From Candidatus Aminicenantota bacterium (GTDB taxonomy: Bacteria; Acidobacteriota; Aminicenantia; Aminicenantales; Saccharicenantaceae): a DNA stretch of 64,000 bases. The notes below the pieces were generated by a model. The model had not been told where the DNA came from, made no database searches, and worked only from the letters and a program-made list of their open reading frames with translations. This document shows, piece after piece, positions 34,225 through 64,000 of this stretch. A program made the translations under genes and the position numbers. The stretch spans positions 62,001 to 126,000 of the forward strand of contig JAPKZD010000025.1 of the NCBI GenBank assembly GCA_026393975.1. The letters are read 5' to 3'. Within the stretch, counting starts at the first letter, position 1. Every line of letters starts with the position of its first letter.

Positions 34225-34262
34225 CTATCAGCGACATCATGTTTCCGGACAGGGGAGGACCC

Positions 34263-36998: not shown

Positions 36999-37070
36999 AA
37001 CTCGAGTGATGAGGGAGCTTTTCCGCCCGGAAGGCCGAGCCCCGGGCGGCGGAGATCTCGGGAGATTCCG

Positions 37071-39170: not shown

Positions 39171-39181
39171 GGAAGGTCCCC

Positions 39182-41626: not shown

Positions 41627-41638
41627 ACGGTCCGGGGA

Positions 41639-42250
41639 TCACTCCCTGGAAACCTGATAGTGCCCGGCTTGAAGGAGCTTGAAGAACGAGCGGGCGCAGG
41701 CCTCGAGATCGCTCGAGGCGTCGTGTGCGCCTTGATAGGAGTGGCCGAACACATAGATGTGCAACTCCTCGAGGGTCGGCCACTTGAGACCGAACCCGCC
41801 CGGTCTTGGCAACCGGCATAGGTCGGTCGTTGACTTCATCGTGCAGATCCCGGGGATCTCCAGGAACCGAAGGGGTTTGTTCTGCCGGACGAGCTCGCCC
41901 CCGAGCACCCCGCAATCATAATCGAGGTTATGGGCGACGAGTGTCGACCCCGGCCGTTCGGACGCCTCCAGGAATTCGTCCAGGACCTCCGCCAACTCCC
42001 TCCCCACCTGGAGGGCGTGCGCTTGGGTAATGCCATGGATCCTTGTCGCGTCAACCGGGATTTCGAATCCTTCCGGCCTGACAATATGGCATCTGGCGTC
42101 TTCGGGATTTCCTTGCAGGTCGTAGCGGGCCCAGGCGATTTGAACAAGACGGGGCCAACCGTCGACATCGTCGGGCGAAAAATAACGGCTACGGGGTAAC
42201 CCCGTTGTCTCGCAATCGAAGAACAAGAACTTACGATCTTGCGTGAGCAT
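41639..42250 (-). CDS. DEDDh 3'-5' exonuclease (DnaQ-like)
   Basis: A 203-residue exonuclease domain. Active-site residues: FFDCETTGLP (Asp-x-Glu), VAHNLDYDCG (Asp) and GAHDASSDLEA (His and final Asp), the full DEDDh set. It resembles the proofreading subunit of DNA polymerase III or RNase T-like enzymes. I chose the ATG at 42250 (MLTQDRKFLFF); the frame is open 81 codons further upstream, but that part has no family similarity. It is a housekeeping-type gene in the middle of a carbohydrate locus, with 11 bases to GH127 on the opposite strand. Its biological partner is unknown. Confidence 0.85.
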   Translation of the reverse strand: MLTQDRKFLFFDCETTGLPRSRYFSPDDVDGWPRLVQIAWARYDLQGNPEDARCHIVRPEGFEIPVDATRIHGITQAHALQVGRELAEVLDEFLEASERPGSTLVAHNLDYDCGVLGGELVRQNKPLRFLEIPGICTMKSTTDLCRLPRPGGFGLKWPTLEELHIYVFGHSYQGAHDASSDLEACARSFFKLLQAGHYQVSRE

Positions 42251-42465
42251 AGCTTCCGCGGTCCAGGCATAAGAGTTACTCGGACCCGGGCTCGGTGTCA
42301 AGACGAAAAGAGGAAAGCTGGCGATATCCGTCGCGAGCTTTCGATCGCCGGCCACGAAATCGGGAGAAGAACCAAAGAAAAGGGCGGAAGGAATCGGGGT
42401 GCGTTGACAGGTAGCCGGCGCCGAGGTACATTCTCCCTCGTCGTCCGGACCGGGAAGGAGGACCC

Positions 42466-44877
42466 ATGAACACACCCCGCGAATATTCGGCATCCCTGCT
42501 GACCTGCCTCATGGCCTGCGGACTCTTGCTTTGGAGCGTTTCCTGCCGGCCCGCCGGGCCCCAGGCCGGGGATGAGCTGGCCGGCGTCACCCAGTTCGTG
42601 GCCAACGGCTCGTTCGAAGAAATGGACGGCGGCAATCCCAAAGGCTGGAGTCCACGGAGCTGGCAGAGGGACGGGGCGGTGTTCGCCGTCGAGCCGTCTG
42701 GGAGAAGCGGCGGCCGAAGCGTCATGATCTCCTCCGAACAGGGCGCCGATGCTTCGTGGGTGACGACCGCCGTTATCAAGCCCTACTCGCGCTATATACT
42801 GAGCGGCTGGGTCAAGACTCAGGAACTCGTGCCCGGAACGAGCCGCGGGGCCCAGATCAACATCGACGGTGAGGAAGAATGGCGCACGCCTCCGGTCAAG
42901 GGGACGCAGGATTGGACCAAGGTCGAAGTCGAGTTCGACGCCGGCGCCAACGACGCCCTCGAGGTGTCGTGCCTGTTCGGCGGCTGGGGGAAAGCGACGG
43001 GGAAGGCCTGGTTCGACGACATCGAGCTCACCCGCCTCTCCGGCAAGGAGCTGGGTCAGTCCAAGGTCACGATCGACATCGATAAGACCGGGAAACCCAT
43101 ATCCAAGTATATCTACGGCCAGTTCATCGAACACCTGGGCCGGTGCATCTATCAGGGGATCTGGGCCGAGATGCTCGAGGACCGGAAGTTCTTCTATGCC
43201 GTGGGAGAGGGCGAATCCCCTTGGAAGGCAGTCGGCGACGCTAGCCTCGTCAAGATGGACAAGGACAAGCCCTTCACGGGCGCCCATACGCCGCGGGTGA
43301 TGCTCGCCGGGAAAGGCCCGGGCGGGATCGTCCAGGAGGCGCTGGCCCTCGTCGAAGGGAAGGAATACGTTGGCTGGATCGTCTTGGCCGGCGACCAGAG
43401 CGCAGCGCCGGTCAACGTCAGTCTCATCTGGGGCGAAGGGTCCGAGGCCCGGCAGACGCTCGCGGCCAAAGAGATCGGGCACGAATACAAGACGTTCCCC
43501 TTTACCTTCAGAGCCGGCGCATCGACCGAGAACGCCCGGCTCGAGATCGTCTCGACGGGCCGGGGCTCGTTCAAAGTCGGGACGGCCTCGATCATGCCGG
43601 CCGACAACGTCGACGGCTTCCGGCCGGAAGTTCTGGCCCTGCTCAAGGAGCTGGATTCCCCCGTCTACCGTTGGCCGGGCGGCAACTTCGTCAGCGGCTA
43701 CGACTGGCGCGATGGCATCGGAGACCGCGACAAACGCCCGCCGCACAAGAACCCGGCCTGGAAGGGCGTCGAGCACAACGACGTCGGCGTCCATGAATAC
43801 CTCGACTTGATGCGGCTCATCGGCTCCGAGCCGTACATCACGGTCAACAGCGGTCTCGGCGACGTCGTCATGGCCCTTGAAGAACTCGGATACGTCAATG
43901 GCGCTCCCGATTCTAAGATGGGCAAGCTCCGCGCGGCCAACGGCCATCCCGAGCCGTGGGGCGTAAAGTTCTGGGCCATCGGCAACGAGATGTACGGCGA
44001 CTGGCAGCTCGGCCACATCCCTCTCTCCGACTACGTCAAGAAGCACACTCAGTACGCCGTGGCGATGAAGGCCATGGACCCCTCCGTGAAGGTTGTCGCT
44101 GTGGGCGCCGTCGGCCGCTGGAGCGAAACCATGCTGGCCGAGGCCTCGAACCACATGGATCTCATCAGCGAGCATTTCTACGTCGGGCACAAGACCGGAC
44201 TCCTCGGCCACGTCAACCAGATGCCGACGGAGATCCGCCGGATCGCCGAGGCCCACCGGAAATACCGGCAGACGATCCCGACGCTCAAGGCGAAGGAAGT
44301 CCCCGTCGCCCTCGACGAGTGGAACTACTGGTACGGGCCGCACATCTACGGCGAGCTCGGAACGCAATATTTCCTGGAAGACGCGCTCGGCGTCGCCGCC
44401 GGGCTCAACGAGTACGCCCGCCAGAGCGACATCTATTTCATGGCCAATTACGCCCAGACCGTCAACGCCCTCGGGGCCATCAAGACCTCGAAGACGGCGG
44501 CCGTGCTCGACACGACGGGCGTCATTCTTGCGCTCTACCGGAAGCAATTCGGGACGATCCCGGTCGCGGTCGGCGGGGCGCCCGAGCCGCTCGACGTCAT
44601 GGCCTGCTGGAAGGACGAGACGAAAGGCGTTATGACCCTGTCGATCGTCAACCCGACCAAGGTGGCACAGACCCTCAGTCTCGATTTCGGGAAGCTGAAG
44701 CTCCCGAAGACGGCCAAACTCTATCTCGTTGCCGGCGACGACCCGAGGGCCTGCAACGTGCCCGGGAAACCTCCGGCCGTCGTGGCCAAAGAGGTCGACG
44801 CCGCTCCGTTCGGCAGGAAGATCACGGTACCCCCGATCAGCGTCTCGCTTTATCATATCGGGGTCGGACCACAGTAA
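42466..44877 (+). CDS. Alpha-L-arabinofuranosidase, GH51, with N-terminal carbohydrate-binding module
   Basis: An 803-residue lipoprotein (lipobox ending SVSC). Residues about 45-190 form a CBM4/9-like module (VANGSFEEMDGGNPKGW is its usual start), then the GH51 barrel begins near ISKYIYGQFIEHLG. Catalytic residues are the Glu of FWAIGNEMYGDW (acid/base) and the Glu of VALDEWNYWYGP (nucleophile), and a C-terminal beta-sandwich follows. It removes alpha-L-arabinofuranosyl groups from arabinan, arabinoxylan or glycoproteins. An AAGGAGG ribosome site precedes the ATG. It is followed after 18 bases by the M14 peptidase. Confidence 0.93.
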   Translation: MNTPREYSASLLTCLMACGLLLWSVSCRPAGPQAGDELAGVTQFVANGSFEEMDGGNPKGWSPRSWQRDGAVFAVEPSGRSGGRSVMISSEQGADASWVTTAVIKPYSRYILSGWVKTQELVPGTSRGAQINIDGEEEWRTPPVKGTQDWTKVEVEFDAGANDALEVSCLFGGWGKATGKAWFDDIELTRLSGKELGQSKVTIDIDKTGKPISKYIYGQFIEHLGRCIYQGIWAEMLEDRKFFYAVGEGESPWKAVGDASLVKMDKDKPFTGAHTPRVMLAGKGPGGIVQEALALVEGKEYVGWIVLAGDQSAAPVNVSLIWGEGSEARQTLAAKEIGHEYKTFPFTFRAGASTENARLEIVSTGRGSFKVGTASIMPADNVDGFRPEVLALLKELDSPVYRWPGGNFVSGYDWRDGIGDRDKRPPHKNPAWKGVEHNDVGVHEYLDLMRLIGSEPYITVNSGLGDVVMALEELGYVNGAPDSKMGKLRAANGHPEPWGVKFWAIGNEMYGDWQLGHIPLSDYVKKHTQYAVAMKAMDPSVKVVAVGAVGRWSETMLAEASNHMDLISEHFYVGHKTGLLGHVNQMPTEIRRIAEAHRKYRQTIPTLKAKEVPVALDEWNYWYGPHIYGELGTQYFLEDALGVAAGLNEYARQSDIYFMANYAQTVNALGAIKTSKTAAVLDTTGVILALYRKQFGTIPVAVGGAPEPLDVMACWKDETKGVMTLSIVNPTKVAQTLSLDFGKLKLPKTAKLYLVAGDDPRACNVPGKPPAVVAKEVDAAPFGRKITVPPISVSLYHIGVGPQ

Positions 44878-44895: not shown

Positions 44896-47808
44896 ATGAG
44901 CCGCGAATCCCGGAGAAATAGGTCTGTTTGGATCTTTGCTTTAGTCCTCGCCCTGGGCCTGGCTGTCGTGCCTGCCCTGGCCCAACAGAAGATCCACGAG
45001 GAGTACACCAAGAAGATCCTCGAGTTCACGACCGATCCTTGCTTCACCACGAAGTACGTCAACTACATGCCGTTCGCCGAGGGCATCCCGACCCCGCTCG
45101 AGGTCCTCGGACACATCGCCGGGGCCAAGGACATCCTGACTTACTCAGCCGACGTCTACAAGTACATGCGGGCCCTGGCCGCCGCCACCCCCCGCGTCAA
45201 GGTCTTCGACATCGGCAAGACCGAGGAGGGCCGCGACTGGATCCTCGTCGCCGTCGCCGATGAGGAAACGATCAAGAACCTCGACAAGTACAAGGCCATC
45301 AACGCCCGGCTGGCCGACCCCCGCGGCCTCACCGAGACCGATGCGCAAAGCCTGATGAAGCAGGCCAAACCGATCTACTGGGCGACCGGCGGCATGCACT
45401 CCAGCGAGACCGGCTCGGTCGAGATGCTCATGGAGCTCGCTTACCGTGTCGCCGTCGACGAGTCCCCCTTTATCAAGACCATCCGCGACAACGCCATTAT
45501 CCTCATCACGCCCATCCTCGAGGTCGACGGCCGCGACAAGCAGGTCGACGTCTCGATGGCCAAGCGCAAGGACCCCAAAGCCAACGTCCCCAACCGGCTC
45601 CTCTATTGGGGCAAATACGTCTCCCACGATAACAACCGCGATAACCTCGGCCTGGCCCTGGCCCTCAGCCGGAACATCATGAAGGTTTTCCTGGATTACC
45701 ATCCGATCGTCATGCACGATCTCCACGAGTCCGCCTCCCACCTCTACATCTCGACGGGCTCCGGCCCCTACAACGCCTGGCTCGACCCGATCGTCATCGA
45801 CGAGTGGCACCTCCTGGCTTACCACGAGGTCGACGAGATGACGAAGGAGGGCGTGCCGGGCGTCTGGACTCACGCCTTCTACGACGGCTGGGCCCCGAAC
45901 TACGCTTTCTACGCGGCCAACGGCCACAACGCCATCGGCCGGTTCTACGAGACCCAGGGCGCGGGCGACGGCTCGACCCGCGTCATCGCCGCGGCTGGCG
46001 ACAGGGCCTGGTATAGGCCCAACCCGCCGCTCCGCTCGACGCTCTGGTCGATCCGCAACAACGTCAACCTCCAGCAGAGCGCCCTCCTCATCGGCATGAA
46101 CCACGTCGCCTCGCTCAAGGACAAGTTCCTGGAGAATTTCCTCCTCAAGAGCAAGCGCTCCGTGGCCAAGGCCCGGAACGAAGGCCCCGCGGCCTACGTC
46201 TTCCCCGGCGACGACCCGCGCCCCGGGCAGGCGGCTCGGCTCCTGCGTCAGCTCCAGGCCCAGGGCGTCGAGGTCCACCGGGCGGACAAGGCCTTCAAGG
46301 TCAAGGAAGCCGAAGTCCCGGCCGGAAGCTACGTCGTCCGCATGGACCAGCCCTATTCGCGCATGGCCGACATGATGCTCGACAAGCAGTATTTCAACGT
46401 CAAGGACCCCCAGCCTTACGACGACGTCGGCTGGACGCTCGGGCCGCTCTACAACGTCAAGACCGTCCGCGTCGACGACGTCGCCGTCCTCGACGCGCCG
46501 ATGACGCTCGTCAAGGGCGAGGTCGCGGCCTCCGGCGGGCTCTCACGCCTGGGAAAAGGCGCTGTCCAGGCCTATCTCATCAACCACAACGCCGATAACG
46601 TCCTGGCCACGTTCCGTTTCGCGCACCAAGACCTGAAGATCCAGGCGGCCGAGAAGGAGTTCGAAGCTCAGGGCAGGAAGTTCCGGGCCGGGACGTTCAT
46701 CCTCAAGCCGGCCGATAACGGCGGGAACCTCGAAGCGACACTCGACGCGGCGGGAAAAACATACGGATTCGCGATTTTCGCCGCCGCGGCCGTCCCCGCC
46801 GTTTCGATGCACGAGGTCGGTGCCCCGCGCGTCGCGGTCATGCACACCTGGCAGAACACGCAGACCGAAGGCTGGCTGAGGGTGGCTCTTGACGAGAGCG
46901 GCATCCCCTATGAATACATCTCCGTCCACGCCGTCCGCGACAACCCTAAGCTCCGCGACAAATACGACGTCATCATCTTCGGGCCGTCGTCTCCCGACGC
47001 GCTCGGCATCGTCAACGGTGTCACCGGCGACAAACCCATGCCGTGGAAAAAGACCGAGCTCACCCCGAACATCGGCGTCGAGGACTCGACCGACGATATG
47101 CGCGGCGGCATCGAGCTCGACGGCGTCCTGCACCTGCGCGATTTCATCAAGGAAGGCGGCGTCTTCATCACCTTGAGCAGCAGCTCGGCGCTTCCCATCC
47201 ACTTCGGGCTGGCTCAGGGCCTTTCGATCCGCGACACGCCGAACCTCTGGGCCCGGGGCGGAGTCTACAAAGCCGACGTCGGCGACAAGTCAAGCCCCCT
47301 CGTCTACGGCTACGATGACACGCTCGGCATCTACTTCAGCCAATCCCCCGTCTTCGCCATGGGCGGGATGGGCGGTCGGTCCATGGGCATGATGCCCGGG
47401 ATGACCCCACCGCCGGGACGGGTGTCGGGGAGAGGAACCGAGAATGACCCGGACATCCCGCAGGGGAGGGCCAGGGACCTCGGCCTGCGGACCATGGAAG
47501 AGTTCCGCAAGGCCCAAAAAGACGCGCCGCAACAGCCGGCCGAAGAAGGCCCGCGCCCGGCCCCGGCCGTCCGGCCGAGGATCGTCCTGAGCTTCGCCCG
47601 GAACGCGGCCGACCTGCTCATAAGCGGCGGCCTCGCGAGCGGCGAGGAGCTGGCCGGCTCTCCGGCCCTGGCCGACGTCACGCTCGGCAAGGGCCACGTC
47701 GTCCTCTTCAGTTTCAACCCGACGTGGCGCAGCCAGACCCACGGCTCCTACTTCCTCGTCTTCAACGCCCTGCTGAACTGGAAGAACCTGGACGCCAAGC
47801 CGAAATAG
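44896..47808 (+). CDS. Secreted M14-family zinc carboxypeptidase
   Basis: A 970-residue exported protein with a signal peptide (about residues 1-33, cleavage after ALA). The M14 catalytic domain comprises about residues 50-370 and has zinc ligands in GGMHSSETGS (HxxE) and the downstream His in MHDLHES, with the substrate-arginine region HDNNRD. A long C-terminal half follows, of beta-rich and glutamine amidotransferase-like character (RVAVMHTWQNTQTEGW), with low-complexity glycine/methionine and proline/alanine linkers near residues 820-900. I preferred the ATG at 44896, six bases after AGGAGG, to the one at 44890. It probably trims peptides outside the cell. Confidence 0.88.
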   Translation: MSRESRRNRSVWIFALVLALGLAVVPALAQQKIHEEYTKKILEFTTDPCFTTKYVNYMPFAEGIPTPLEVLGHIAGAKDILTYSADVYKYMRALAAATPRVKVFDIGKTEEGRDWILVAVADEETIKNLDKYKAINARLADPRGLTETDAQSLMKQAKPIYWATGGMHSSETGSVEMLMELAYRVAVDESPFIKTIRDNAIILITPILEVDGRDKQVDVSMAKRKDPKANVPNRLLYWGKYVSHDNNRDNLGLALALSRNIMKVFLDYHPIVMHDLHESASHLYISTGSGPYNAWLDPIVIDEWHLLAYHEVDEMTKEGVPGVWTHAFYDGWAPNYAFYAANGHNAIGRFYETQGAGDGSTRVIAAAGDRAWYRPNPPLRSTLWSIRNNVNLQQSALLIGMNHVASLKDKFLENFLLKSKRSVAKARNEGPAAYVFPGDDPRPGQAARLLRQLQAQGVEVHRADKAFKVKEAEVPAGSYVVRMDQPYSRMADMMLDKQYFNVKDPQPYDDVGWTLGPLYNVKTVRVDDVAVLDAPMTLVKGEVAASGGLSRLGKGAVQAYLINHNADNVLATFRFAHQDLKIQAAEKEFEAQGRKFRAGTFILKPADNGGNLEATLDAAGKTYGFAIFAAAAVPAVSMHEVGAPRVAVMHTWQNTQTEGWLRVALDESGIPYEYISVHAVRDNPKLRDKYDVIIFGPSSPDALGIVNGVTGDKPMPWKKTELTPNIGVEDSTDDMRGGIELDGVLHLRDFIKEGGVFITLSSSSALPIHFGLAQGLSIRDTPNLWARGGVYKADVGDKSSPLVYGYDDTLGIYFSQSPVFAMGGMGGRSMGMMPGMTPPPGRVSGRGTENDPDIPQGRARDLGLRTMEEFRKAQKDAPQQPAEEGPRPAPAVRPRIVLSFARNAADLLISGGLASGEELAGSPALADVTLGKGHVVLFSFNPTWRSQTHGSYFLVFNALLNWKNLDAKPK

Positions 47809-47856
47809 GGAACGCTGGGAACGGCCTCGAGGAACAAAGCCGGACCGGTAAACGTA

Positions 47857-47862
47857 TATAAT
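47857..47862 (+). promoter_or_regulatory. -10 box upstream of the small secreted protein gene
   Basis: TATAAT at 47857-47862, 31 bases before the ATG at 47894, in an AT-rich patch. No convincing -35 was found at the usual distance. Confidence 0.4.
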
Positions 47863-47893
47863 ATGAAAACCCAATGACGAATTGGAGGCTTTT

Positions 47894-48283
47894 ATGAAGA
47901 AAACCATTCGCACAACGGCGACGGCTCTCCTGGCCCTGGCCTGTCTGGCGGCTTTGGCCGTCACGGCGGTCGCCCAGGACAAGCCCGTTGACATGAAAAA
48001 GGTCATCGCTGAAATCGTCGGCGACTACGATTTCTCCTTCCAAGGGCAGTCGATGATCGTCCAGTTCACCGAGAATGACGGTAAGCTTTTCGGCGCCCCC
48101 GTCGGAGAGACGCCCGAGGAGGTAAAGCCCGTCGAGGGGAAGCCCCTCTTTTTCGACGTCACCGTGGCGGCGAACGGCCAGTATTACGAGATGCAGTTCG
48201 TCCGCAACGAGAAGGGCGTCATCGACAAGTGCGTCTTGAGCGTGATGGGAACGATGGTCGAGGGGATGAAGATCATCAAGTAG
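47894..48283 (+). CDS. Small secreted hypothetical protein
   Basis: A 129-residue protein: signal peptide to about residue 27 (cleavage after AVA), then a beta-rich domain beginning VIAEIVGDYDFSFQGQSM, which resembles the lipocalin-like or DUF3471-type modules found at the ends of serine hydrolases. There are no catalytic motifs. The ATG at 47894 has GGAGG 5 bases before it; the in-frame TTG at 47882 would use up that site. It stands alone between the M14 gene and the lipid cluster promoter. Function is unknown. Confidence 0.75.
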   Translation: MKKTIRTTATALLALACLAALAVTAVAQDKPVDMKKVIAEIVGDYDFSFQGQSMIVQFTENDGKLFGAPVGETPEEVKPVEGKPLFFDVTVAANGQYYEMQFVRNEKGVIDKCVLSVMGTMVEGMKIIK

Positions 48284-48354
48284 GCGTTCCCCCCTCCTCC
48301 TAGACCTTTTCGGCTCGGTCTTCGGTAAGATTTTAGACGGCGCGATTCGTCCTA

Positions 48355-48384
48355 TTGACAACGCCAAAGTCAGCAAGCAATAAT
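48355..48384 (+). promoter_or_regulatory. Promoter at the head of the lipid biosynthetic cluster
   Basis: TTGACA (48355-48360), an 18-base spacer, AATAAT (48379-48384). Transcription would start near 48391, only about 7 bases before the FabG ATG at 48398, and no Shine-Dalgarno is present. This appears to be the only strong promoter for the co-directional genes from 48.4 kb to the end of the window. Confidence 0.6.
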
Positions 48385-48397
48385 GTCGCCTTAAGCT

Positions 48398-49144
48398 ATG
48401 GCTGATAACCAAGAAGATAGTTGCCGAAAGATAGCGCTGGTTACGGGGGGAAGTCGGGGAATCGGTGCTGCCATCGCCGTCCGGTTGGCCGCCGATGGAT
48501 ATGACATCTGGTTGAACTTCCGGCGGAACAGGGAAAGGGCCATGGCCGTGGCCGAGAAGGTTCGCTCACTGGGCCGCGAATGCCAGTTCCTGGAGTTCGA
48601 TGTCGCCGACGCAGCCCATACGGCGCAGGTCCTTCATCCACTCCTTGAGGAGCGGTGTCCGGACATATTGGTCAACAACGCCGGCGTTTCCCGGGACGCG
48701 ATCTTCGGATTGATGTCGGATAGAGACTGGGAGGAGGTCATCGACACCTCTCTGCGGGGGTTCTTCAACGTGACCCGGCCCGTGGTCCAAAAGATGATCC
48801 ACCGTCGCCAGGGCCGGATCGTGACCATCTCTTCGACCTCGGGCTTGAGCGGCGTACCCGGCCAAGTGAATTATTCGGCGGCCAAGGCCGGTCTGATCGG
48901 GGCGACCAAGGCCCTGGCCCTGGAAGTAGCCCGCCGGCGTATTCTGGTCAACGCCGTCGCCCCGGGATTCATTGAAACGGAAATGATCGAGCATATGCCG
49001 CTGGACCAGATCCTGCCGCGCATCCCCCTGGGACGCCTGGGCCGCCCGGAAGAGGTCGCCGCCCTAGTCAGTTTTCTCTGTTCGGAAGAGGCTGGCTATA
49101 TCACCGGCCAAGTTTTTTCGATCAACGGCGGGATCTACTCTTGA
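48398..49144 (+). CDS. 3-oxoacyl-ACP reductase (FabG-type) of the lipid cluster
   Basis: A 248-residue short-chain dehydrogenase. NADPH motif TGGSRGIGAA, NNAG, the catalytic Ser in TISSTSG, and Tyr159/Lys163 in YSAAK are present. The fourth tetrad position, usually Asn in a VNL motif, reads DTSLRG, so Ser118 replaces Asn. It reduces the 3-oxo group during chain elongation on ACP. It is the first gene of the cluster and ends 97 bases before the FAD oxidoreductase, with no other frame in between that I could support. FabG homologues head or sit within aryl-polyene clusters as well. Confidence 0.9.
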   Translation: MADNQEDSCRKIALVTGGSRGIGAAIAVRLAADGYDIWLNFRRNRERAMAVAEKVRSLGRECQFLEFDVADAAHTAQVLHPLLEERCPDILVNNAGVSRDAIFGLMSDRDWEEVIDTSLRGFFNVTRPVVQKMIHRRQGRIVTISSTSGLSGVPGQVNYSAAKAGLIGATKALALEVARRRILVNAVAPGFIETEMIEHMPLDQILPRIPLGRLGRPEEVAALVSFLCSEEAGYITGQVFSINGGIYS

Positions 49145-49241
49145 AGCGAGTACCCTCAGCCGAAAAAGGGAACATGACCATCGGCTGGGCGAGGATCGCG
49201 GCGACGAAGCTCGCCGGGATGTCGCTCCAAGAAGGGTCCTC

Positions 49242-50750
49242 ATGGGAAAGGCCGAAACCTTGAGAAACGTCATCGTGATCGGATCCGGCTTCAGCGGGCT
49301 CGTCTCTTCCCTGTTGCTGTCCCGGGCCGGGATGAACGTCACTGTCGTCGAAAAGAACGTAAAGGTTGCTCCGCTCCTGCGCAACTATGACTACCAAGGT
49401 TTCGAGTTCAACAACGGATTCCACTATCTTGGGGGATATGCCGCCGGGGGGGCCCTCCACCGCATGTTCGGCGAGTTGGGACTGCGCGATCGACTGAATC
49501 CCGTCCCCATCAACCCGGACGCATTCGACGTGTTCCAGGGGATTTGCGACGATCCGATCGCCGTTCCCGTAGGGGCGGCCCGGGTTCGGGCTGTCCTGGG
49601 CAAGGCCTTCCCCGGGAACGAAGCGGTTCTCGCGGACTATTGCGAGGAGTTGGAAAAGGCCTTCCGTGATTTTGATTTTCTGAATCTCGGGGAATATTTC
49701 ATCCGGGTCGATCCGGCGCTGATCGACCGGTCCCTGGCCGATTTCCTGGCCGATCGAGGGGCCAGCCCCGCCCTGGTCGAATTTCTGAGTGTCTATACGG
49801 ATATGCTCCTCGGTGTCAGCGCCCGGGAAGTTTCGTTCCTGACGCACCTGCTCGGCGTCGGCGCGTATTTCCTCTCCGCGCATACGTTCGAGGGCGGAGG
49901 CGGAGCTCTGGCCGATGCTCTCGAAGCCCAGGCCAGGGAAAACGGCGTCCTTCTGCGGACAGGCTGGGAGGCGACAAGGATCGAGAGCGACTCCGGCCGC
50001 CGTTTCGTCGGCCTTCGCCTGCGGGCCGGGGACGGACGGGAGGAATTTGTTCCGGCCAACGCGTGTATCTGCACGATCCATCCGAAGCGCCTCCTCGCCC
50101 TGCTTCAGGACGGCGCGTCGTTCGATCTCTTCGCCCATCGCATATCGGGGTTACAGGACACGAGGGCCGTCTGTCTCTTCCATCTGGCCGTCCGCCGCGA
50201 CGCGGCTCAACGGATCGTAAGCAATTATCATCTTTTTCATCGCAATGAATTCGGCGGGTTACAGCATCGGTTCACCCTTCTTCCCGATTTCACCCGTCCT
50301 CCGGGCCCGGCCGCTTCCGAGACACGAATGACCGCCTTGGTTACCGCCTGGGACAACGACAGGGGCGACTCCTGCCCCGGGGGGAAAGGCCCTTCTTGCC
50401 AAGAACACGCCCCGGCTGGACCCGCGGGGGGCGAGAACAAGGAACCTGCTTATTTGGCAGGGTTCCGGAACAGGTTTGTCGCCCGTCTGGAGGAAGGGTT
50501 CCCCGATTTTCGAGAGGCGTACCAGATTATTGGAATAACGGCTCCGTGCGACTTGGACCGGATAAGCGCCACCTGGAACGGATCCCTCTATGGATTGAAG
50601 TGCAACTCCAGTCGAATGCGATTGACGCCCAGGGGACCGATGAAGGGATTATATCTGGCGGGGCAGAGCATCATCGCTCCCGGCATCTTCGGGACGCTCG
50701 TCTCCGCCTGCATGGCCAGCCGGCACGTCCTCCGAAGGAGGACGGCGTGA
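49242..50750 (+). CDS. CrtI-like FAD-dependent oxidoreductase
   Basis: A 502-residue protein of the phytoene-desaturase/retinol-saturase group. Dinucleotide motif VIGSGFSGLVSSLLLSRAG at residues 12-30, and the matching C-terminal FAD motif GLYLAGQSIIAPGIFGTLVSA. The family oxidises, reduces or isomerises conjugated C=C bonds, which suits a polyene or cyclised acyl chain. CrtI-like genes also occur in candidate ladderane-lipid clusters. The ATG at 49242 has GAAGGG before it. Its end overlaps the GTG of the first ketosynthase by 4 bases. Confidence 0.85.
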   Translation: MGKAETLRNVIVIGSGFSGLVSSLLLSRAGMNVTVVEKNVKVAPLLRNYDYQGFEFNNGFHYLGGYAAGGALHRMFGELGLRDRLNPVPINPDAFDVFQGICDDPIAVPVGAARVRAVLGKAFPGNEAVLADYCEELEKAFRDFDFLNLGEYFIRVDPALIDRSLADFLADRGASPALVEFLSVYTDMLLGVSAREVSFLTHLLGVGAYFLSAHTFEGGGGALADALEAQARENGVLLRTGWEATRIESDSGRRFVGLRLRAGDGREEFVPANACICTIHPKRLLALLQDGASFDLFAHRISGLQDTRAVCLFHLAVRRDAAQRIVSNYHLFHRNEFGGLQHRFTLLPDFTRPPGPAASETRMTALVTAWDNDRGDSCPGGKGPSCQEHAPAGPAGGENKEPAYLAGFRNRFVARLEEGFPDFREAYQIIGITAPCDLDRISATWNGSLYGLKCNSSRMRLTPRGPMKGLYLAGQSIIAPGIFGTLVSACMASRHVLRRRTA

Positions 50751-59855: not shown

Positions 59856-61280
59856 ATGAGTGGGATCACCCTCGTTCAACCCTGCGGCATGAACTGGGAG
59901 CCGCAACGAAGGGATATGTCCCGGATCGCCAATATCATGCCGCCGATCGGCCTTTGTTCTCTGGCGGCATGGGTCGAACGGCACGGGCACCGGGCCCGGA
60001 TCCAGGATTTCTATGCCTATCCCGGGGAGGAATCCCGATTCCTCGAGAGCCTCCCGTCGGAAAGGCCGGATTTCGTCGGCTTCTCGGTCACGACGTCGAG
60101 CTTCCCGGACGCTGTCCGCCTGGCGCGGATGGTTAAGGCGGTTCCGGGGATCCGGACGATTTTCGGCGGCGTGCACGTATCTTCGTTGGCCGAGCGGCTG
60201 ATGCAGGATTATCCCGAGATCGACCTGGCCGTGGCCGGGGAGGGAGAGGAGGCCCTGCGGGAGATCCTGGACAAGGACGGGCGGCCGCCGTTCGGGACCG
60301 GAGGGATCTTTTATCGGGCGGACGGGAAGATCTCGTCCAGCGGAACGGCCGGGCGCATTCGCGATCTCGATTGCCTGCCGTTCCCTGACTACGGCAAGCT
60401 CGCGGGGTTTCCAGGACATTACAAGATGCCGCTTTTCAGCTATCCCCATGCTCCGGCGACGATCGCGGTGACCAGCCGCGGCTGTACATACGCGTGCAGT
60501 TATTGCGACCGTTCCGTATTCGGACGTTCCTACAGGTATCACAGTTCCGAATACCTCATCGAGTGGTTCCGTTTCCTGCACAACCACTTCGGGATCCGGC
60601 ACCTGAACCTCTATGACGATAACCTGACCAACCACCGCCCGCGCGTCCTGGCCTTCTGCGAATCTCTGGCCCGGTCCGGCCTGCGCTTGAGTTTCAATTG
60701 CGCCTCGCGGGCCGAGCTCCTCGACCGCGAGCTCCTCCGGGCCCTCAAACGCGCGGGATGCTGGATGATCAGCCTGGGCATCGAAAGCGGCGACTGGGAG
60801 ATCCTGCGGAGACACCGCAATCAGCCGGCCGACCTGGAGACCATGCGGGAACGCATCGGCCTCATCCGGGAAGAAGGGATACGGGTCAAGGGATTGTTCA
60901 TGATCGGCCTCCCCGGCGAGACCGAGGCCAGCCTGGCGCGGACACGAGCGTATATCCTCAGCCTTCCTCTGGACGATTTCAACCTGACCAAGTTCACTCC
61001 TTTCCCGGGCGCGCCGTGCTACCCGGACCTCGAACAGGACGGCGAGTTTCGGGAGGACTGGGCGCTGGCCAACTGCCTGAATACCCTATTCGTCCCCCGC
61101 GGCTTGACGGCCGAACGCCTTGACGACATGTTTAAAGACATCTATAGGAGCTACTATCGGCGCTGGCGCGTTCTGGCCGGCTACATCCCCATGATCTGGC
61201 AATCGCCCGACAGCTGGCGGCGGTTCATTGGGAACCTCGGCTCGTTCCTGGAACTGTGCCGCGACTATCGGGGATCATGA
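59856..61280 (+). CDS. B12-fold radical SAM protein 3
   Basis: A 474-residue protein. The N-terminal Rossmann domain starts NIMPPIGLCSLAAWVERHGH, with IFGGVHVSSL and VAGEGEEALRE; the radical SAM motif is TSRGCTYACSYCDRS with Cys210, Cys214 and Cys217, followed by SLGIESGD and IGLPGETEAS. It is the most canonical of the three. It starts one base after the previous stop, so all three are made together. Three non-identical B12-type radical SAM enzymes imply several C-C bond-forming or methylation steps on the product. Confidence 0.87.
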   Translation: MSGITLVQPCGMNWEPQRRDMSRIANIMPPIGLCSLAAWVERHGHRARIQDFYAYPGEESRFLESLPSERPDFVGFSVTTSSFPDAVRLARMVKAVPGIRTIFGGVHVSSLAERLMQDYPEIDLAVAGEGEEALREILDKDGRPPFGTGGIFYRADGKISSSGTAGRIRDLDCLPFPDYGKLAGFPGHYKMPLFSYPHAPATIAVTSRGCTYACSYCDRSVFGRSYRYHSSEYLIEWFRFLHNHFGIRHLNLYDDNLTNHRPRVLAFCESLARSGLRLSFNCASRAELLDRELLRALKRAGCWMISLGIESGDWEILRRHRNQPADLETMRERIGLIREEGIRVKGLFMIGLPGETEASLARTRAYILSLPLDDFNLTKFTPFPGAPCYPDLEQDGEFREDWALANCLNTLFVPRGLTAERLDDMFKDIYRSYYRRWRVLAGYIPMIWQSPDSWRRFIGNLGSFLELCRDYRGS

Positions 61281-61290
61281 GGGAAACGGA

Positions 61291-62547
61291 ATGAACGGCG
61301 AAGAACCTCGGATCCTGGTCGTTGTCCCTTTCTACAACAACGGCCGGACCGTGGCGAGCGTGGTGTCGGAGATCACGGCTCTGGGTTGGCCGCTTCTTGT
61401 GATCAATGACGGGTCCACGGACGGAGGGCCCGATTCCCTGAAAGGCCTGCCGCTTGAACGCATCGACCTGACCCGCAACGGGGGAAAGGGCCGGGCTCTG
61501 CGCCTGGCCCTGCGGTGGGCCCGGACTCGGGGATACACGCATGTCGTTACTCTCGACGCCGACGGCCAGCATTCGCCACAGGATATCGCACGCTTTGTCG
61601 AGAAGATCCGCCGGGCCCCGGATTGCCTGATCGTCGGCCGCCGGAACTTCCGGAGCGACGTCCCCGGCAAGAGCCGCTTTGGCCGGGGCTGGTCCAACAT
61701 GTGGATACGCATCTCTTCGGGCGGTCGGACACCGGATTCCCAGAGCGGATTCAGGGCCTATCCGCTGGATCCCCTGGCCGACTTCAAGTACCTGGGTGCC
61801 CACTTCGAATTCGAAGTCGAGATCCTCGTCCGCGCGGTTTGGACCGGAGTTCCCTTGGACTGGGTGGACGTCTCCCTTCAATATTTCCCGCTGTCCGGCC
61901 GGGTCTCCCATTTCCGCCCGTTCATGGACAATTTCCGTATCACGGTCATGTATACCGGTCTCGTGATCAGGAATCTTCTGCCTTTCCCGTTTCGACGGCG
62001 GGGAGTCCGCCGGGACCTCCCACGCTCCGAGTCGCCCGAGAGAGCGGACAGACCAAGGAAGGATGGCCCGGGACGGGAAACCCGGTTAAGGTACCTGAAG
62101 AGGGCCCTGGCCGAGCCAACAAGAGACGGAGAATCCGGGTTCGAGAAGGCCTTGGCGGGCTGGTTGGGGGGCTTTTTTGGGGCCCTGCCGCTCGTCGGGA
62201 TCATGTCGCGGACGGTGCGCCTCTATGCAGCGCGTTTCGGACTCGACTCGAGGATCGCGCTGGCCGTCAACAAGCTGGGATCGCCTTGGGTGTGGCCGGC
62301 AATCGCCCCATTGGCCGTAGAATGGGGGCATTATGTCCGCGCCGGCCGTTTTCTCGGACCAGCCGATTTTCCCGATATCGAAGCGGCGTTCCGAATCCTA
62401 GGCAGGGAATTCCCTTGGCGACTCTTGGACTACATCGCCGGGGGTATCCGGATCGGCTTCCTGGTAGGAACCCTTGTTTTTCTCATCATACTGGCCGGTT
62501 CCAAACCTAAAAAAGGGGCCTTGGACGGAGATCATGAGCCCGCCTAA
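61291..62547 (+). CDS. Family 2 glycosyltransferase with C-terminal DUF2062 membrane domain
   Basis: A 418-residue protein. GT-A domain with VVVPFYNNGRTVASVV, INDGSTDGG, the DxD at residues 89-91 in TLDADGQHSP, and SQSGFRAYPL, like dolichyl-phosphate sugar transferases. The C-terminal part after a charged linker has the DUF2062 pattern (WLGGFFGALPLVGI and two or three membrane segments). GT2 plus LpxL-type acyltransferase is a hallmark of aryl-polyene clusters, where the two may be fused (ApeJ). Here they are separate and overlap by 14 bases. ATG 61291 was chosen because earlier codons overlap the radical SAM gene. Confidence 0.87.
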   Translation: MNGEEPRILVVVPFYNNGRTVASVVSEITALGWPLLVINDGSTDGGPDSLKGLPLERIDLTRNGGKGRALRLALRWARTRGYTHVVTLDADGQHSPQDIARFVEKIRRAPDCLIVGRRNFRSDVPGKSRFGRGWSNMWIRISSGGRTPDSQSGFRAYPLDPLADFKYLGAHFEFEVEILVRAVWTGVPLDWVDVSLQYFPLSGRVSHFRPFMDNFRITVMYTGLVIRNLLPFPFRRRGVRRDLPRSESPERADRPRKDGPGRETRLRYLKRALAEPTRDGESGFEKALAGWLGGFFGALPLVGIMSRTVRLYAARFGLDSRIALAVNKLGSPWVWPAIAPLAVEWGHYVRAGRFLGPADFPDIEAAFRILGREFPWRLLDYIAGGIRIGFLVGTLVFLIILAGSKPKKGALDGDHEPA

Positions 62548-63424
62548 ACGCGAGCCCCGATACGGAAATCGGCCGGGTCATCAGATATTCCGCTGGGTGA
62601 TTCGCCATCTTGGGATGGGGCCCGCATATAAGGTCTTGGTCCCGGTCATCGGCTATTATGTTCTCTTCCGGCCGAGCGCGGTCCGGGCGGCGGCTCCTTA
62701 CATCCGCCGGAGGTTCCCCAGGAAGGGGTGCTTCCAAAGATTGTGGCAGATCTACAGGCATTACTACCAGTTCGGGGCGTGCCTGGTCGATCAGGCCGCC
62801 GCCGGCATCCTGGGGCCGGAGAGCCTGCGGATCGAATTCCCCGACGCCGAGGACCTGAGTCGTATCGCCAGAGAGGGCCGCGGCCTGGTCTTCATCACCA
62901 GCCACGTCGGGATCTGGCAGCGCGCCATTTCCGTCCTGGGCTTTATGAAAAGGACCGTCTATCTCCATCTCCGCCAAGACCCGTCCTCCGAATCCATGGG
63001 CCTGGCCGAGTTCGGGGATGACGGGCCGCGGGTGATCTCTCCGGACGGCTTCTTGGGAGGGATTCCCGAATTGAGTTCCGCCCTGGCTCATGGTAATATT
63101 GTAGCGATCATGGGCGATCGTGGTTTCGGATCGGCGACGTGCGAAAAGGCCGCTTTTCTCGGGGAGGACGCCTCTTTCCCTCTCCTGCCTTACCACCTGG
63201 CGCTGAGCACGAAGAGTGATCTTGCCGTTCTCCTGACAAGCCGGACCGGCCCGATGCGCTTTCGCCTGCGGGCCGTGACGATCCGAATGACGGATGACTG
63301 GCTGGCCATGGACAAGGACGCGGCCCGATCGCTTCTCCTCCGTCGATACGTAGGGCTTTTAGAGGATCACATCGGGGAGCACCCCTACATGTGGTTTAAT
63401 TTCTTTGATTTCTGGGCCGATTGA
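62534..63424 (+). CDS. LpxL/HtrB-like lipid acyltransferase
   Basis: A 296-residue protein of the lysophospholipid/lipid A late acyltransferase family. The N-terminal membrane helix is at about 30-45. The catalytic block reads ITSHVGIWQRA, where the family HX4E motif has Gln129 in place of Glu, and the downstream IMGDRGFGS resembles the second block. Activity may be altered. ATG 62534, with CGGAG just before it, overlaps the glycosyltransferase gene by 14 bases. It would transfer the finished acyl chain to a glycolipid headgroup. Confidence 0.82.
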   Translation: MSPPKREPRYGNRPGHQIFRWVIRHLGMGPAYKVLVPVIGYYVLFRPSAVRAAAPYIRRRFPRKGCFQRLWQIYRHYYQFGACLVDQAAAGILGPESLRIEFPDAEDLSRIAREGRGLVFITSHVGIWQRAISVLGFMKRTVYLHLRQDPSSESMGLAEFGDDGPRVISPDGFLGGIPELSSALAHGNIVAIMGDRGFGSATCEKAAFLGEDASFPLLPYHLALSTKSDLAVLLTSRTGPMRFRLRAVTIRMTDDWLAMDKDAARSLLLRRYVGLLEDHIGEHPYMWFNFFDFWAD

Positions 63425-63487
63425 AGGGGGCGTTCTGCGGAGGAGAGTCGCGACGTTAGGGAGGAATAGGCATCGGAGTCCGAGGAG

Positions 63488-63757
63488 ATGAACGTGGAAC
63501 TGAAACAGCAGTTGAAAGAAATGATCATCGCTGAGCTCAAGCTGACGAACGTCGCGCCGGACGATATTTCCGACGACGGACCTTTGTTCGGAAGCGAGAG
63601 CGCGCTGGGCCTCGATTCATTGGACGCCGTCGAGCTCGTGGTCCTGCTAAAGAAGAAGTTCGGGGTCGAGATCGGCGACCAGAGCACGGCCATGGCCGCC
63701 TTCGCCTCCATCAACTCCCTGGCGGATTTCCTGTCCCGGAAAACCCCTTCGACATGA
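63488..63757 (+). CDS. Acyl carrier protein 2
   Basis: An 89-residue ACP with the phosphopantetheine site at Ser44 in LGLDSLDAVELVVLLK, acidic N-terminus and DISDDGPLFG loop. It is clearly different from ACP 1, so the two probably carry different intermediates or the starter unit. A GAGGAG lies before the ATG. It overlaps the next ketosynthase by 4 bases (ATGA at 63754). Confidence 0.93.
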   Translation: MNVELKQQLKEMIIAELKLTNVAPDDISDDGPLFGSESALGLDSLDAVELVVLLKKKFGVEIGDQSTAMAAFASINSLADFLSRKTPST

Positions 63758-64000
63758 TCTCCGATCGCCCTGTCGTCACGGGACTGGGATGTCTCTCGGC
63801 GGGAGGCGCCGGCCTGGAATCCGCCTGGGCCTCCATGATGGCCGGCGTCGTGTCGTGCGGTCCTCCGTCCCGTTTTCAGGCCGCTCCGGCACGCCAAAGC
63901 CCCATCTTCGAGGTATCGGCCGGCGCGTGGGCCCGTTCCCGGATCGTCCCGGAGGCTGAACTTCCCCGGACGCTCTGCGTCGAGTTCTTCCTATCCGCCC
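63754..64000 (+). CDS. Ketosynthase 3, N-terminal part (continues past the window)
   Basis: An open frame of 82 complete codons from ATG 63754 to the window end. It begins ISDRPVVTGLGCLSAGGAG, the typical start of a ketosynthase, followed by SAWASMMAG. The catalytic Cys and His motifs lie beyond the window, so activity cannot be judged. It overlaps ACP 2 by 4 bases and shows that the cluster extends further. Confidence 0.8.
   Translation, partial: MISDRPVVTGLGCLSAGGAGLESAWASMMAGVVSCGPPSRFQAAPARQSPIFEVSAGAWARSRIVPEAELPRTLCVEFFLSA

What the first reader, a model, noticed from the sequence alone, without database searches (positions are those of the whole stretch)
48398..64000. Unusual lipid cluster mixing aryl-polyene-type and radical SAM/CrtI-type parts
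At least 15 co-directional genes combine type II FAS/PKS parts (three KS, a half-size KS-like protein, two ACPs, FabG, two fused hotdog dehydratases, thioesterase) with PlsC, GT2-DUF2062 and LpxL-like genes. Three B12-fold radical SAM proteins and a CrtI-like FAD enzyme are also present. The first set is characteristic of aryl polyenes; the radical SAM plus CrtI-like set recalls candidate ladderane clusters. I know of no characterised pathway with exactly this composition. No ammonia-lyase or aryl starter ligase is seen in the window, so an aryl starter is not supported here. Product: unknown acyl chain mounted on a glyco- or glycerolipid (inference).
Basis: partly seen in the sequence, partly recalled or inferred. 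Interest (0 to 1): 0.92.

Follow-up and report, generated by a model that had tools for sequence, protein, structure and literature searches.

The report
Radical-enzyme variant of aryl-polyene operon
A bacterium related to Candidatus Aminicenantes carries an apparently complete, so far uncharacterised operon that looks built to make an unusual fatty chain and move it to the outer membrane; it shares its assembly machinery with the yellow aryl-polyene pigments and some enzymes with the ladderane clusters of anammox bacteria, but seems to have lost the parts that would start the chain from an aromatic ring.

Summary
The gene list is confirmed, and the operon continues 6 kb past the window (20 co-directional genes, 48398-70185 on the extended contig; an MMPL-methyltransferase fusion lies 10 kb further). 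It is not an ad hoc mixture but a member of an operon family found here in many bacterial phyla. Of 17 genes in E. coli's aryl-polyene (APE) cluster, 14 have counterparts, four of these weak or inconclusive; the ligase ApeH, ApeG and ApeB are missing. Added are a CrtI-like enzyme and three B12-fold radical SAM proteins. One belongs to the family NCBIfam names for ladderanes (TIGR04072, 474 bits, cut-off 360). The hallmark is rSAM1, an unnamed family 52-67% identical in other phyla; 14 anammox genomes tested have no ortholog. The flexirubin-type ligase found next to intact copies in 12 of 22 loci is also gone. Rattray et al. 2009 noted similar clusters, so this is a new variant of a known, uncharacterised kind. 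The product is unknown; ladderanes and an aryl start are both disfavoured.

The parts
48285..48291 (.). Left edge: DNA homology to congeners that lack the cluster at this place stops here
   Evidence: blastn: 93.4% identity to G004 ends at 48291, 78% to G009 ends at 48285; to G006 it ends earlier, at 47804
48355..48384 (+). sigma-70-like promoter match TTGACA-18-AATAAT just before the first gene (consensus match; only its position speaks for it)
   Evidence: the one such match in 48200-64000, fewer than the 2.6 expected by shuffling
48398..49144 (+). FabG-type ketoreductase (ApeQ counterpart)
   Evidence: 49% to ApeQ; NCBIfam FabG, FlxB 312 bits of 340
49242..50750 (+). CrtI-like FAD oxidoreductase (kuste3336 relative)
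   Evidence: Pfam Amino_oxidase; 26% over 292 aa to the Kuenenia-like K_3336
50747..51985 (+). KS1 (ApeR counterpart), Cys-His-His intact; start chosen by eye inside the longer ORF
   Evidence: 37% to ApeR; alignment
51982..52263 (+). ACP1 (ApeF counterpart), DSL motif
   Evidence: 42% to ApeF; alignment
52260..53084 (+). PlsC-type acyltransferase (ApeD counterpart)
   Evidence: PF01553
53110..54975 (+). Fusion: degenerate radical SAM/SPASM domain (CX3CX2C lost, seven of eight C-terminal cysteine columns kept) + two hotdog domains (ApeP-like, weak; ApeI-like)
54972..55457 (+). 4HBT thioesterase (ApeK counterpart)
55450..56592 (+). KS2, active-site residues intact (ApeO-like)
   Evidence: 39% to ApeO
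56589..57275 (+). CLF1, half-size chain-length-factor-like KS partner without the Cys
   Evidence: profile match to the kuste3345-position protein
57272..58495 (+). rSAM1: B12-fold radical SAM, hallmark family, most conserved protein of the operon
   Evidence: PF02310; CX3CX2C
58499..59854 (+). rSAM2: TIGR04072 rSAM_ladder_B12 (kuste3342 family)
   Evidence: 474 bits, cut-off 360; 30% to K_3342
59856..61280 (+). rSAM3: B12-fold radical SAM, nearest models BchE (168 of 481 bits) and chain AprD4
61291..62547 (+). GT2 glycosyltransferase with DUF2062-like tail (N-terminal half of ApeJ)
62534..63424 (+). LpxL-like acyltransferase (C-terminal half of ApeJ)
63488..63757 (+). ACP2 (ApeE counterpart)
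   Evidence: 39% to ApeE
63754..64000 (+). Start of KS3 (to 64953 on the extended contig), followed outside the window by CLF2 64950-65930, LolA 65934-66629, DUF3261 lipoprotein 66626-67288, LolA-like 966-aa protein to 70185, and, minus strand, MMPL+methyltransferase-like domain 80240-83341

Best explanation
An apparently complete single transcription unit of the aryl-polyene/flexirubin/'ladderane-type' superfamily, in a radical-SAM version whose carriers, by their names, are mostly anaerobes (inference). Proposed working: two KS/CLF pairs, KS1, FabG and two hotdog dehydratases build a reduced, polyunsaturated chain on two ACPs. rSAM1, rSAM2, rSAM3 and the CrtI-like flavoenzyme desaturate, deoxygenate, methylate or cyclise it without oxygen. 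PlsC, GT2 and LpxL mount it on a glycerol/sugar lipid, and MMPL, LolA, the DUF3261 lipoprotein and the 966-aa LolA-like protein carry it to the outer membrane. In this lineage the ligase is gone and the radical SAM/SPASM enzyme is dead; both are present side by side in many relatives and in the anammox cluster. So the chain is probably not primed through that route. Shown: gene content, homology, synteny, lost motifs. Inferred: co-transcription, the order of steps, the substrates, the destination. Unknown: the product.
For: Homology to the characterised E. coli APE cluster, 14 of 17 genes, four of them weak or inconclusive. TIGR04072 above cut-off. Recurring order, read as a composite of loci: CrtI-KS1-ACP1-PlsC-(ligase)-(rSAM/SPASM)-hotdog-TE-KS2-CLF1-rSAM1-rSAM2-(rSAM3)-GT2-LpxL-ACP2-KS3-CLF2. 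rSAM1 at >50% identity in 71 of 80 loci; 60 of 72 loci with at least 1.4 kb upstream have it directly before rSAM2. KS catalytic residues and ACP motifs intact, so the chain-building genes are not decayed.
Against: No product, expression or enzyme activity was found reported for a cluster of the rSAM1 type. CLF1 could not be shown by sequence profile to be ApeC's counterpart (hhalign probability 5%). In many relatives LolA and MMPL stand between the two hotdogs; here LolA is at the end and MMPL detached, so its membership is inferred. The 966-aa protein was found only in this lineage and its role is a guess. The ApeL, ApeP and ApeN matches are weak. The promoter match is no more than chance gives. 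CrtI-like anammox proteins kuste3336 and kuste3607 gave no lycopene in E. coli (PMC4790861, passages), so a desaturase role is unproven.
Confidence: 0.73

Rival explanations
1. A genuine ladderane operon: the radical enzymes zip a polyunsaturated acyl-ACP into fused cyclobutanes as proposed for anammox bacteria.
For: TIGR04072 member, CrtI-like enzyme, two KS/CLF pairs as in the Kuenenia-like cluster, MMPL and methyltransferase relatives.
Against: The kuste3343-type radical SAM/SPASM is dead here, the ligase kuste3344 is absent, no kuste3347-type methyltransferase was found from 47801 to the contig end. rSAM2 of the window lies far from the anammox branch; rSAM1 has no ortholog in 14 anammox genomes. 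Rattray et al. found no ladderanes in Desulfotalea (abstract).
Confidence: 0.05
2. A true aryl-polyene or flexirubin operon whose aryl starter is supplied by genes elsewhere in the genome.
For: 14 of 17 APE counterparts, four weak or inconclusive; two of the three nearest non-Aminicenantes relatives, L066 and L068, carry a FlxY-type ligase in the operon.
Against: No ligase in the operon and none found in the genome (95% complete, no positive control); the only aromatic-lyase-family gene is a histidine ammonia-lyase. The E. coli cluster has no radical SAM gene.
Confidence: 0.12
3. Anaerobic polyunsaturated fatty acid or hydrocarbon synthesis (Rattray's reading): the operon makes PUFA that may be turned into long polyenes such as C31:9.
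For: Desulfotalea, whose clusters resemble Kuenenia's, makes C31:8 and C31:9 hydrocarbons and was found to lack other known PUFA systems (PMC2649909, passages).
Against: The export genes (MMPL, LolA, DUF3261) and the PlsC/GT2/LpxL set point to an outer-membrane lipid rather than a free hydrocarbon (inference); OleABCD was not searched for here.
Confidence: 0.12
4. The neighbouring block of 2-hydroxyacyl-CoA dehydratase, its activase, acyl-CoA synthetase and PanE-like reductase (70247-75430 on the extended contig) is the new starter supply, making an enoyl- or aryl-acrylyl-CoA.
For: Same orientation and GC3; the dehydratase is also next to the 966-aa gene in one congener at 92%.
Against: Not beside the cluster in G046 (only a 24% dehydratase match about 13.5 kb away); of 78 loci outside this lineage, with flanks of at most 10 kb, none has the dehydratase and one has a BadF match.
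Confidence: 0.08

Closest known systems
Desulfotalea/Geobacter-type FASII clusters with radical SAM genes (Rattray et al. 2009)
   Same: Same kind by description: radical SAM genes, phytoene-desaturase-like genes, several KS, a ligase, GT. Relatives fetched here from Geobacteraceae, Desulfuromonadaceae, Desulfobacterales and Calditrichaceae share order and rSAM1. Surveys list 'ladderane' clusters in Desulfobacterota, Omnitrophota and others (PMC9902471, passages); that these are the same family was not tested.
   Different: FlxY-type ligase lost, radical SAM/SPASM dead and fused to both hotdogs, extra 966-aa LolA-like protein. Desulfotalea's own cluster was not fetched.
Aryl-polyene cluster, E. 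coli CFT073 (NC_004431, 1143727-1158294)
   Same: 14 of 17 genes have counterparts, 10 clear and 4 weak or inconclusive, with GT2 and LpxL as the two halves of ApeJ.
   Different: No ApeH ligase, ApeG or ApeB; adds three radical SAM, a CrtI-like enzyme and a second KS/CLF pair.
Candidate ladderane cluster of anammox (kuste3335-3352 order, seen here in the Kuenenia-like genome G472)
   Same: rSAM2, CrtI-like, two KS/CLF pairs, FabG, ACP, MMPL, methyltransferase and deacetylase relatives.
   Different: rSAM/SPASM intact and ligase present there; rSAM1 not (best 35% in 14 genomes); identities of shared genes only 20-45%.
Flexirubin clusters (NCBIfam Flx models)
   Same: FabG near FlxB (312 of 340 bits) and LolA related to LolA2_flexi (80 of 125); ligases of relatives resemble FlxY.
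   Different: No tyrosine ammonia-lyase, no FlxY here; no Flx model listed passes its cut-off.

Membership tests
Aryl-polyene (APE) cluster | ApeO-type KS, ApeR-type KS, KR, dehydratases, two ACPs, TE, acyltransferase, GT/LpxL, LolA, MMPL, DUF3261 | tested here: met
   14 of 17 E. coli genes with counterparts incl. ApeC; ApeP and ApeL weak, ApeN by Pfam family only
Aryl-polyene (APE) cluster | Half-size CLF homologous to ApeC | tested here: inconclusive
   CLF1 has the KS fold but no profile match to ApeC
Aryl-polyene (APE) cluster | Aryl starter ligase (ApeH) | tested here: not met
   no counterpart in the operon
Flexirubin cluster | Tyrosine ammonia-lyase FlxA | tested here: not met
   the only PF00221 gene of the genome is over the HutH cut-off; FlxA 352 of 700 bits
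Flexirubin cluster | Acyl-CoA ligase FlxY | tested here: not met
   FlxY-like ligases, all below the model cut-off, in relatives and Kuenenia-like G472; absent in the operon, none found in the genome
Anammox ladderane candidate cluster | TIGR04072 B12/radical SAM protein | tested here: met
   474 bits, cut-off 360
Anammox ladderane candidate cluster | Active kuste3343-type radical SAM/SPASM | tested here: not met
   CX3CX2C lost in the window and in L064
Anammox ladderane candidate cluster | Produces ladderane lipids | not testable with these tools
   needs lipid analysis
rSAM1-rSAM2 operon family described here | rSAM1 directly before rSAM2, flanked by KS2-CLF1 and GT2-LpxL-ACP2-KS3-CLF2 | tested here: met
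Rattray's Desulfotalea kind | Homology to the Desulfotalea psychrophila genes DP1853/DP1855 themselves | not tested
   that genome was not fetched; the link rests on the paper and on the Kuenenia-like orthologs

The most novel reading that the evidence does not exclude
The operon family makes a still undescribed class of outer-membrane lipids of anaerobes: polyene-derived chains edited by radical SAM enzymes, with the anammox ladderane pathway as one offshoot of the same assembly line. In the Aminicenantes branch a non-aromatic start has replaced the ligase route, and rSAM3 has taken the place of the radical SAM/SPASM enzyme, whose dead domain survives as a scaffold.
Probability: 0.27. Interest if true: 0.82.

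Novelty: new variant of a known kind. Interest (0 to 1): 0.6.

Why it matters
How ladderanes are made is an open question, and anammox bacteria have not been grown in pure culture (PMC9821293, passages). The comparison suggests that the anammox candidate cluster shares KS/CLF pairs, a FlxY-type ligase, MMPL and GT with aryl polyenes and flexirubins, and rSAM2 and the radical SAM/SPASM enzyme with an uncharacterised operon family spread over many other bacteria. Those enzymes could therefore be tested outside anammox bacteria, in any culturable carrier. The Aminicenantes variant, in which the ligase and the SPASM enzyme are both out of action, hints at which steps may go together.

Tried and rejected
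Fresh mixture of two cluster types: rejected, since the order recurs across phyla. Decayed cluster: rejected for the KS and ACP genes. Contaminating contig: unlikely, since a congener (G012) carries the 966-aa gene at 91% and a DUF3261 fragment at 95%; a misjoin at 48291 itself cannot be excluded without reads. Kuenenia-like rSAM1: a 29% relative lies about 2.5 kb upstream of the candidate genes there, not an ortholog.

rSAM3 against active rSAM/SPASM: among 48 rows with enough flanking DNA (of 90 rows examined), 0 of 17 with tandem rSAM3 have an intact rSAM/SPASM, against 20 of 31 without (Fisher p 6e-6). The 17 include the window and one contig counted twice (L073 = G378). Corrected for kinship it is not significant: the tree needs only 2 changes and yields 3 independent pairs. 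An active SPASM gene beyond the 10-kb flank would be missed. Against the replacement idea: L066 has neither enzyme, and L129 (Desulfamplus magnetovallimortis) has a SPASM relative without CX3CX2C but no tandem rSAM3, so loss of the motif also happens without rSAM3 and is not unique to this lineage. I found L129 only on the final recount and lowered the novel case from 0.30 to 0.27 and the main confidence from 0.74 to 0.73 for it and for the corrected APE count (four, not three, weak matches).

Ligase and active SPASM enzyme as a pair: 12 of 22 loci with an intact copy have the ligase directly upstream; of the other 10, four have one elsewhere in the locus, and some have little DNA upstream. 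A ligase is seen in 22 of 80 loci in all. So the joint loss here is suggestive only.

Foreign origin: GC3 right of 48291 is 0.77 (28 genes) against 0.85 (22 genes) to the left. A first version used a left set picked with GC3 in view and gave 0.87; it is replaced, whose left set includes Pfam-checked frames but is still my choice. The left side has exceptions at 0.63 and 0.76-0.77. Transfer is likely, loss in congeners not excluded.

The ligase search of the genome has no positive control. VIA-align and Foldseek listed no ApeC chain among the rows shown; this proves nothing. Rfam at gathering scores found nothing in 47500-64000. OleABCD and hydrazine synthase were not searched in the window's genome.
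Full report
What is there. The window is positions 62001-126000 of contig C24 (145,567 bases) of a 2.95-Mb, 95% complete genome. The contig runs 19.6 kb past the window, and I read it to its end. From 48398 to 70185 there are 20 co-directional genes: FabG, CrtI-like, KS1, ACP1, PlsC, SPASM-hotdog-hotdog, TE, KS2, CLF1, rSAM1, rSAM2, rSAM3, GT2, LpxL, ACP2, KS3, CLF2, LolA, DUF3261 lipoprotein and a 966-aa protein with a weak LolA-like match (20.6 bits of 30). Starts of KS1, ACP1, SPASM-hotdog, CLF1, rSAM1, GT2, LpxL and the 966-aa protein were set by eye inside longer ORFs. Beyond it lie a 2-hydroxyacyl-CoA dehydratase block, a sulfatase, a second acyltransferase, a polysaccharide deacetylase and, on the minus strand, an MMPL exporter fused to a methyltransferase-like domain.

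The chain-building parts look functional. KS1, KS2 and KS3 keep Cys-His-His; CLF1 and CLF2 lack the Cys; both ACPs have the DSL motif. CLF1 (228 aa), modelled from 27 sequences with pLDDT 86, has the ketosynthase fold. rSAM1, rSAM2 and rSAM3 each have CX3CX2C and a B12-binding-type N-terminal domain (PF02310); none has a DxHxxG motif. rSAM1's Pfam radical SAM score is below the cut-off (21.5 of 29.5), but its model (pLDDT 91) is closest to AprD4, a radical SAM diol dehydratase (TM 0.81/0.73, 18% identity). Fold likeness shows no function.

Test against the characterised aryl-polyene cluster. I fetched the E. coli CFT073 genes (the Ape letters are recalled, the record gives product names) and compared them. 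Clear: FabG-ApeQ 49%, KS1-ApeR 37%, ACP1-ApeF 42%, ACP2-ApeE 39%, KS2- and KS3-ApeO 39% and 33%, GT2 and LpxL matching the two halves of ApeJ, PlsC-ApeD, TE-ApeK, second hotdog-ApeI (E 4e-6), MMPL-ApeM: 10 Ape genes. Weak or inconclusive: first hotdog-ApeP (phmmer E 0.005), LolA-ApeL (6e-5), DUF3261-ApeN (shared Pfam family; direct E 0.08), CLF1-ApeC (E 0.05; hhalign probability 5%). ApeH (the ligase), ApeG and ApeB have none. That is 14 of 17 with everything counted.

Test against the anammox candidate ladderane cluster. In the class of a Brocadiaceae locus, 38 of 75 genomes have the HZS_alpha domain, which I took as an anammox marker (recalled; two genomes have 6 and 14 copies, so it is not strict). 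Of these 38, only 5 have TIGR04072 over cut-off; others have at best relatives below it, such as those near 300-340 bits. One of the five, G472 (contig C1 of 4.41 Mb), shows the functions of the published kuste3335-3352 table in the same order, except that the ACP kuste3350 was not picked up by my ORF list. Against it the window has rSAM2-K_3342 30%, SPASM domain-K_3343 33% (E 5e-52), CrtI 26%, FabG 41%, KS 27-40%, ACP2 45%, and MMPL and methyltransferase parts 20% and 29%. The 195-aa protein in the place of 'unknown' kuste3345 matches the CLF1 profile (hhalign 96%, E 5e-9), so both clusters have two KS/CLF pairs. The 'phenylacetyl-CoA ligase' kuste3344 and the ligases of five other clusters are best matched by the flexirubin ligase model FlxY, at 381-478 of 520 bits.

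What differs in the window. (1) The ligase is missing between PlsC and the hotdog protein, where L066 and L068, two of the three nearest rows outside this lineage, have it; the third, L069, shows little of the operon. In the 80 loci, 22 show a ligase; of 22 loci with an intact SPASM enzyme, 12 have it directly upstream. (2) The SPASM domain has lost all three CX3CX2C cysteines, while seven of eight C-terminal cysteine columns are kept, in the window and in L064 alike. Intact copies occur in 22 of 80 loci, alone or fused to the first hotdog. Retention of a dead domain in two genomes suggests a structural role (inference). L129 also has a copy without the motif, so this is not unique. (3) The genome's only aromatic-lyase-family gene is a histidine ammonia-lyase (558 bits, cut-off 539), and no FlxY-type ligase was found (no positive control). 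Together these argue against an aryl start by known routes. (4) The 966-aa protein was found by tblastn only in the window's genome, G012 and G046/L064 among the loci held (a weak blastp match in L131). (5) In many relatives LolA and MMPL stand between the two hotdogs; here LolA is at the end and MMPL detached.

An operon family in many phyla. One scan gave 196 relatives of rSAM2, of which the best 80 were returned. Record titles name Desulfobacterota groups, Nitrospirota, Omnitrophota, Calditrichaceae, Brocadiaceae, Phycisphaerae, Spartobacteria, Kiritimatiellales, Lentisphaerae, Hydrogenedentota, Elusimicrobia, Holophagaceae and others; all but four titles say MAG. rSAM1 is present at over 50% identity in 71 of 80. 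Of 72 loci with at least 1.4 kb upstream of rSAM2, 64 have it, 60 directly adjacent. Its median identity to the window outside this lineage is 61% (72 loci), higher than for any other gene (next: FabG 53% in 5 loci, ACP2 47% in 58). In 14 genomes with HZS_alpha the best match is only 31-35% identical. On the rSAM2 tree (90 rows, quick method) the window groups with L064 and L065 (support 100) and then with L066, L068 and L069 (94); the three anammox rows form a separate long branch.

Two layouts. Some loci carry an active rSAM/SPASM, others rSAM3 in tandem after rSAM2 (28 of 80); no covered row has both (0 of 17 against 20 of 31). With kinship taken into account this is two changes on the tree and not significant, and L129 and L066 do not fit a simple exchange. 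Replacement of one enzyme by the other is only a hypothesis; the window, with rSAM3 and a dead SPASM domain, is compatible with it.

History in this genus. In two congeners the DNA up to 48285-48291 is homologous (93% and 78%) and then stops; in a third it stops at 47804. None of 12 congeners has TIGR04072 over cut-off, and one of the 12, G012, has the dehydratase with fragments of the operon's end at 91-95% in a broken assembly. Over the cut-off are 3 of 60 near relatives and 7 of 396 genomes sampled in the phylum, own genome included in both. GC3 drops from 0.85 to 0.77 at the edge. Horizontal acquisition is likely, not proven.

Literature. Rattray et al. 2009 (PMC2649909; outline with abstract, passages and one section) described such clusters in Kuenenia, Desulfotalea, Geobacter and Pelobacter and proposed anaerobic PUFA synthesis; no ladderanes but C31:8 and C31:9 hydrocarbons were found in Desulfotalea. 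Javidpour et al. 2016 (PMC4790861; passages and one section) found no lycopene with kuste3336 or kuste3607. PMC9821293 (passages) states that ladder-forming enzymes are unknown. Surveys report 'ladderane' clusters outside anammox: PMC9902471, PMC7298704, PMC8692599, passages of each; PMC6562949 (passages) ascribes its one to anammox. PMC10132072 lists KS-CLF pairs from Candidatus Aminicenantes (passages). The other papers were seen in listings only. No paper on a product of an rSAM1-type operon, or on radical SAM genes in an Aminicenantes cluster, was recognised in the ten searches; the library lacks most subscription papers.

Verdict. The cluster is a new variant, ligase-less and with a dead SPASM domain, of a known but uncharacterised operon kind that bridges aryl polyenes and the anammox cluster. 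Its product is open; an export-destined, radical-edited polyene lipid is the likeliest.

Noticed in passing
L196 12419-13006 (Kuenenia-like G472): The protein in the position of kuste3345, called 'unknown' in the literature table, is a half-size chain-length-factor relative (hhalign 96%, E 5e-9), so the anammox cluster has two KS/CLF pairs.
   Followed up: yes
L196 13003-14310 and ligases of L066, L068, L075, L137, L204: The 'phenylacetyl-CoA ligase' kuste3344 type is best matched by the flexirubin ligase model FlxY, below its cut-off.
   Followed up: partly
L129 95-1675: Desulfamplus magnetovallimortis has a SPASM-hotdog relative without CX3CX2C and without tandem rSAM3; a second case of the dead domain.
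   Followed up: partly
L196 2214-3557: A B12-fold radical SAM gene, 29% to rSAM1, lies about 2.5 kb upstream of the kuste3352-kuste3335 genes and is not in the operon table seen in PMC4790861.
   Followed up: no
L002 7247-12430: 2-hydroxyacyl-CoA dehydratase D component, activase, ADP-forming acyl-CoA synthetase and PanE-like reductase directly after the operon; only one dehydratase subunit is seen.
   Followed up: partly
L002 4285-7185: 966-aa protein with a weak LolA-like domain, found only in this lineage; possibly an outer-membrane acceptor.
   Followed up: partly
window 55450-57275: KS2 and CLF1 also match the cispentacin models AmcF (227 of 325 bits) and, weakly, AmcG.
   Followed up: no
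window 34239-44877: Sortilin/BNR-repeat protein, GH127 arabinofuranosidase and another arabinofuranosidase, outside the finding.
   Followed up: no
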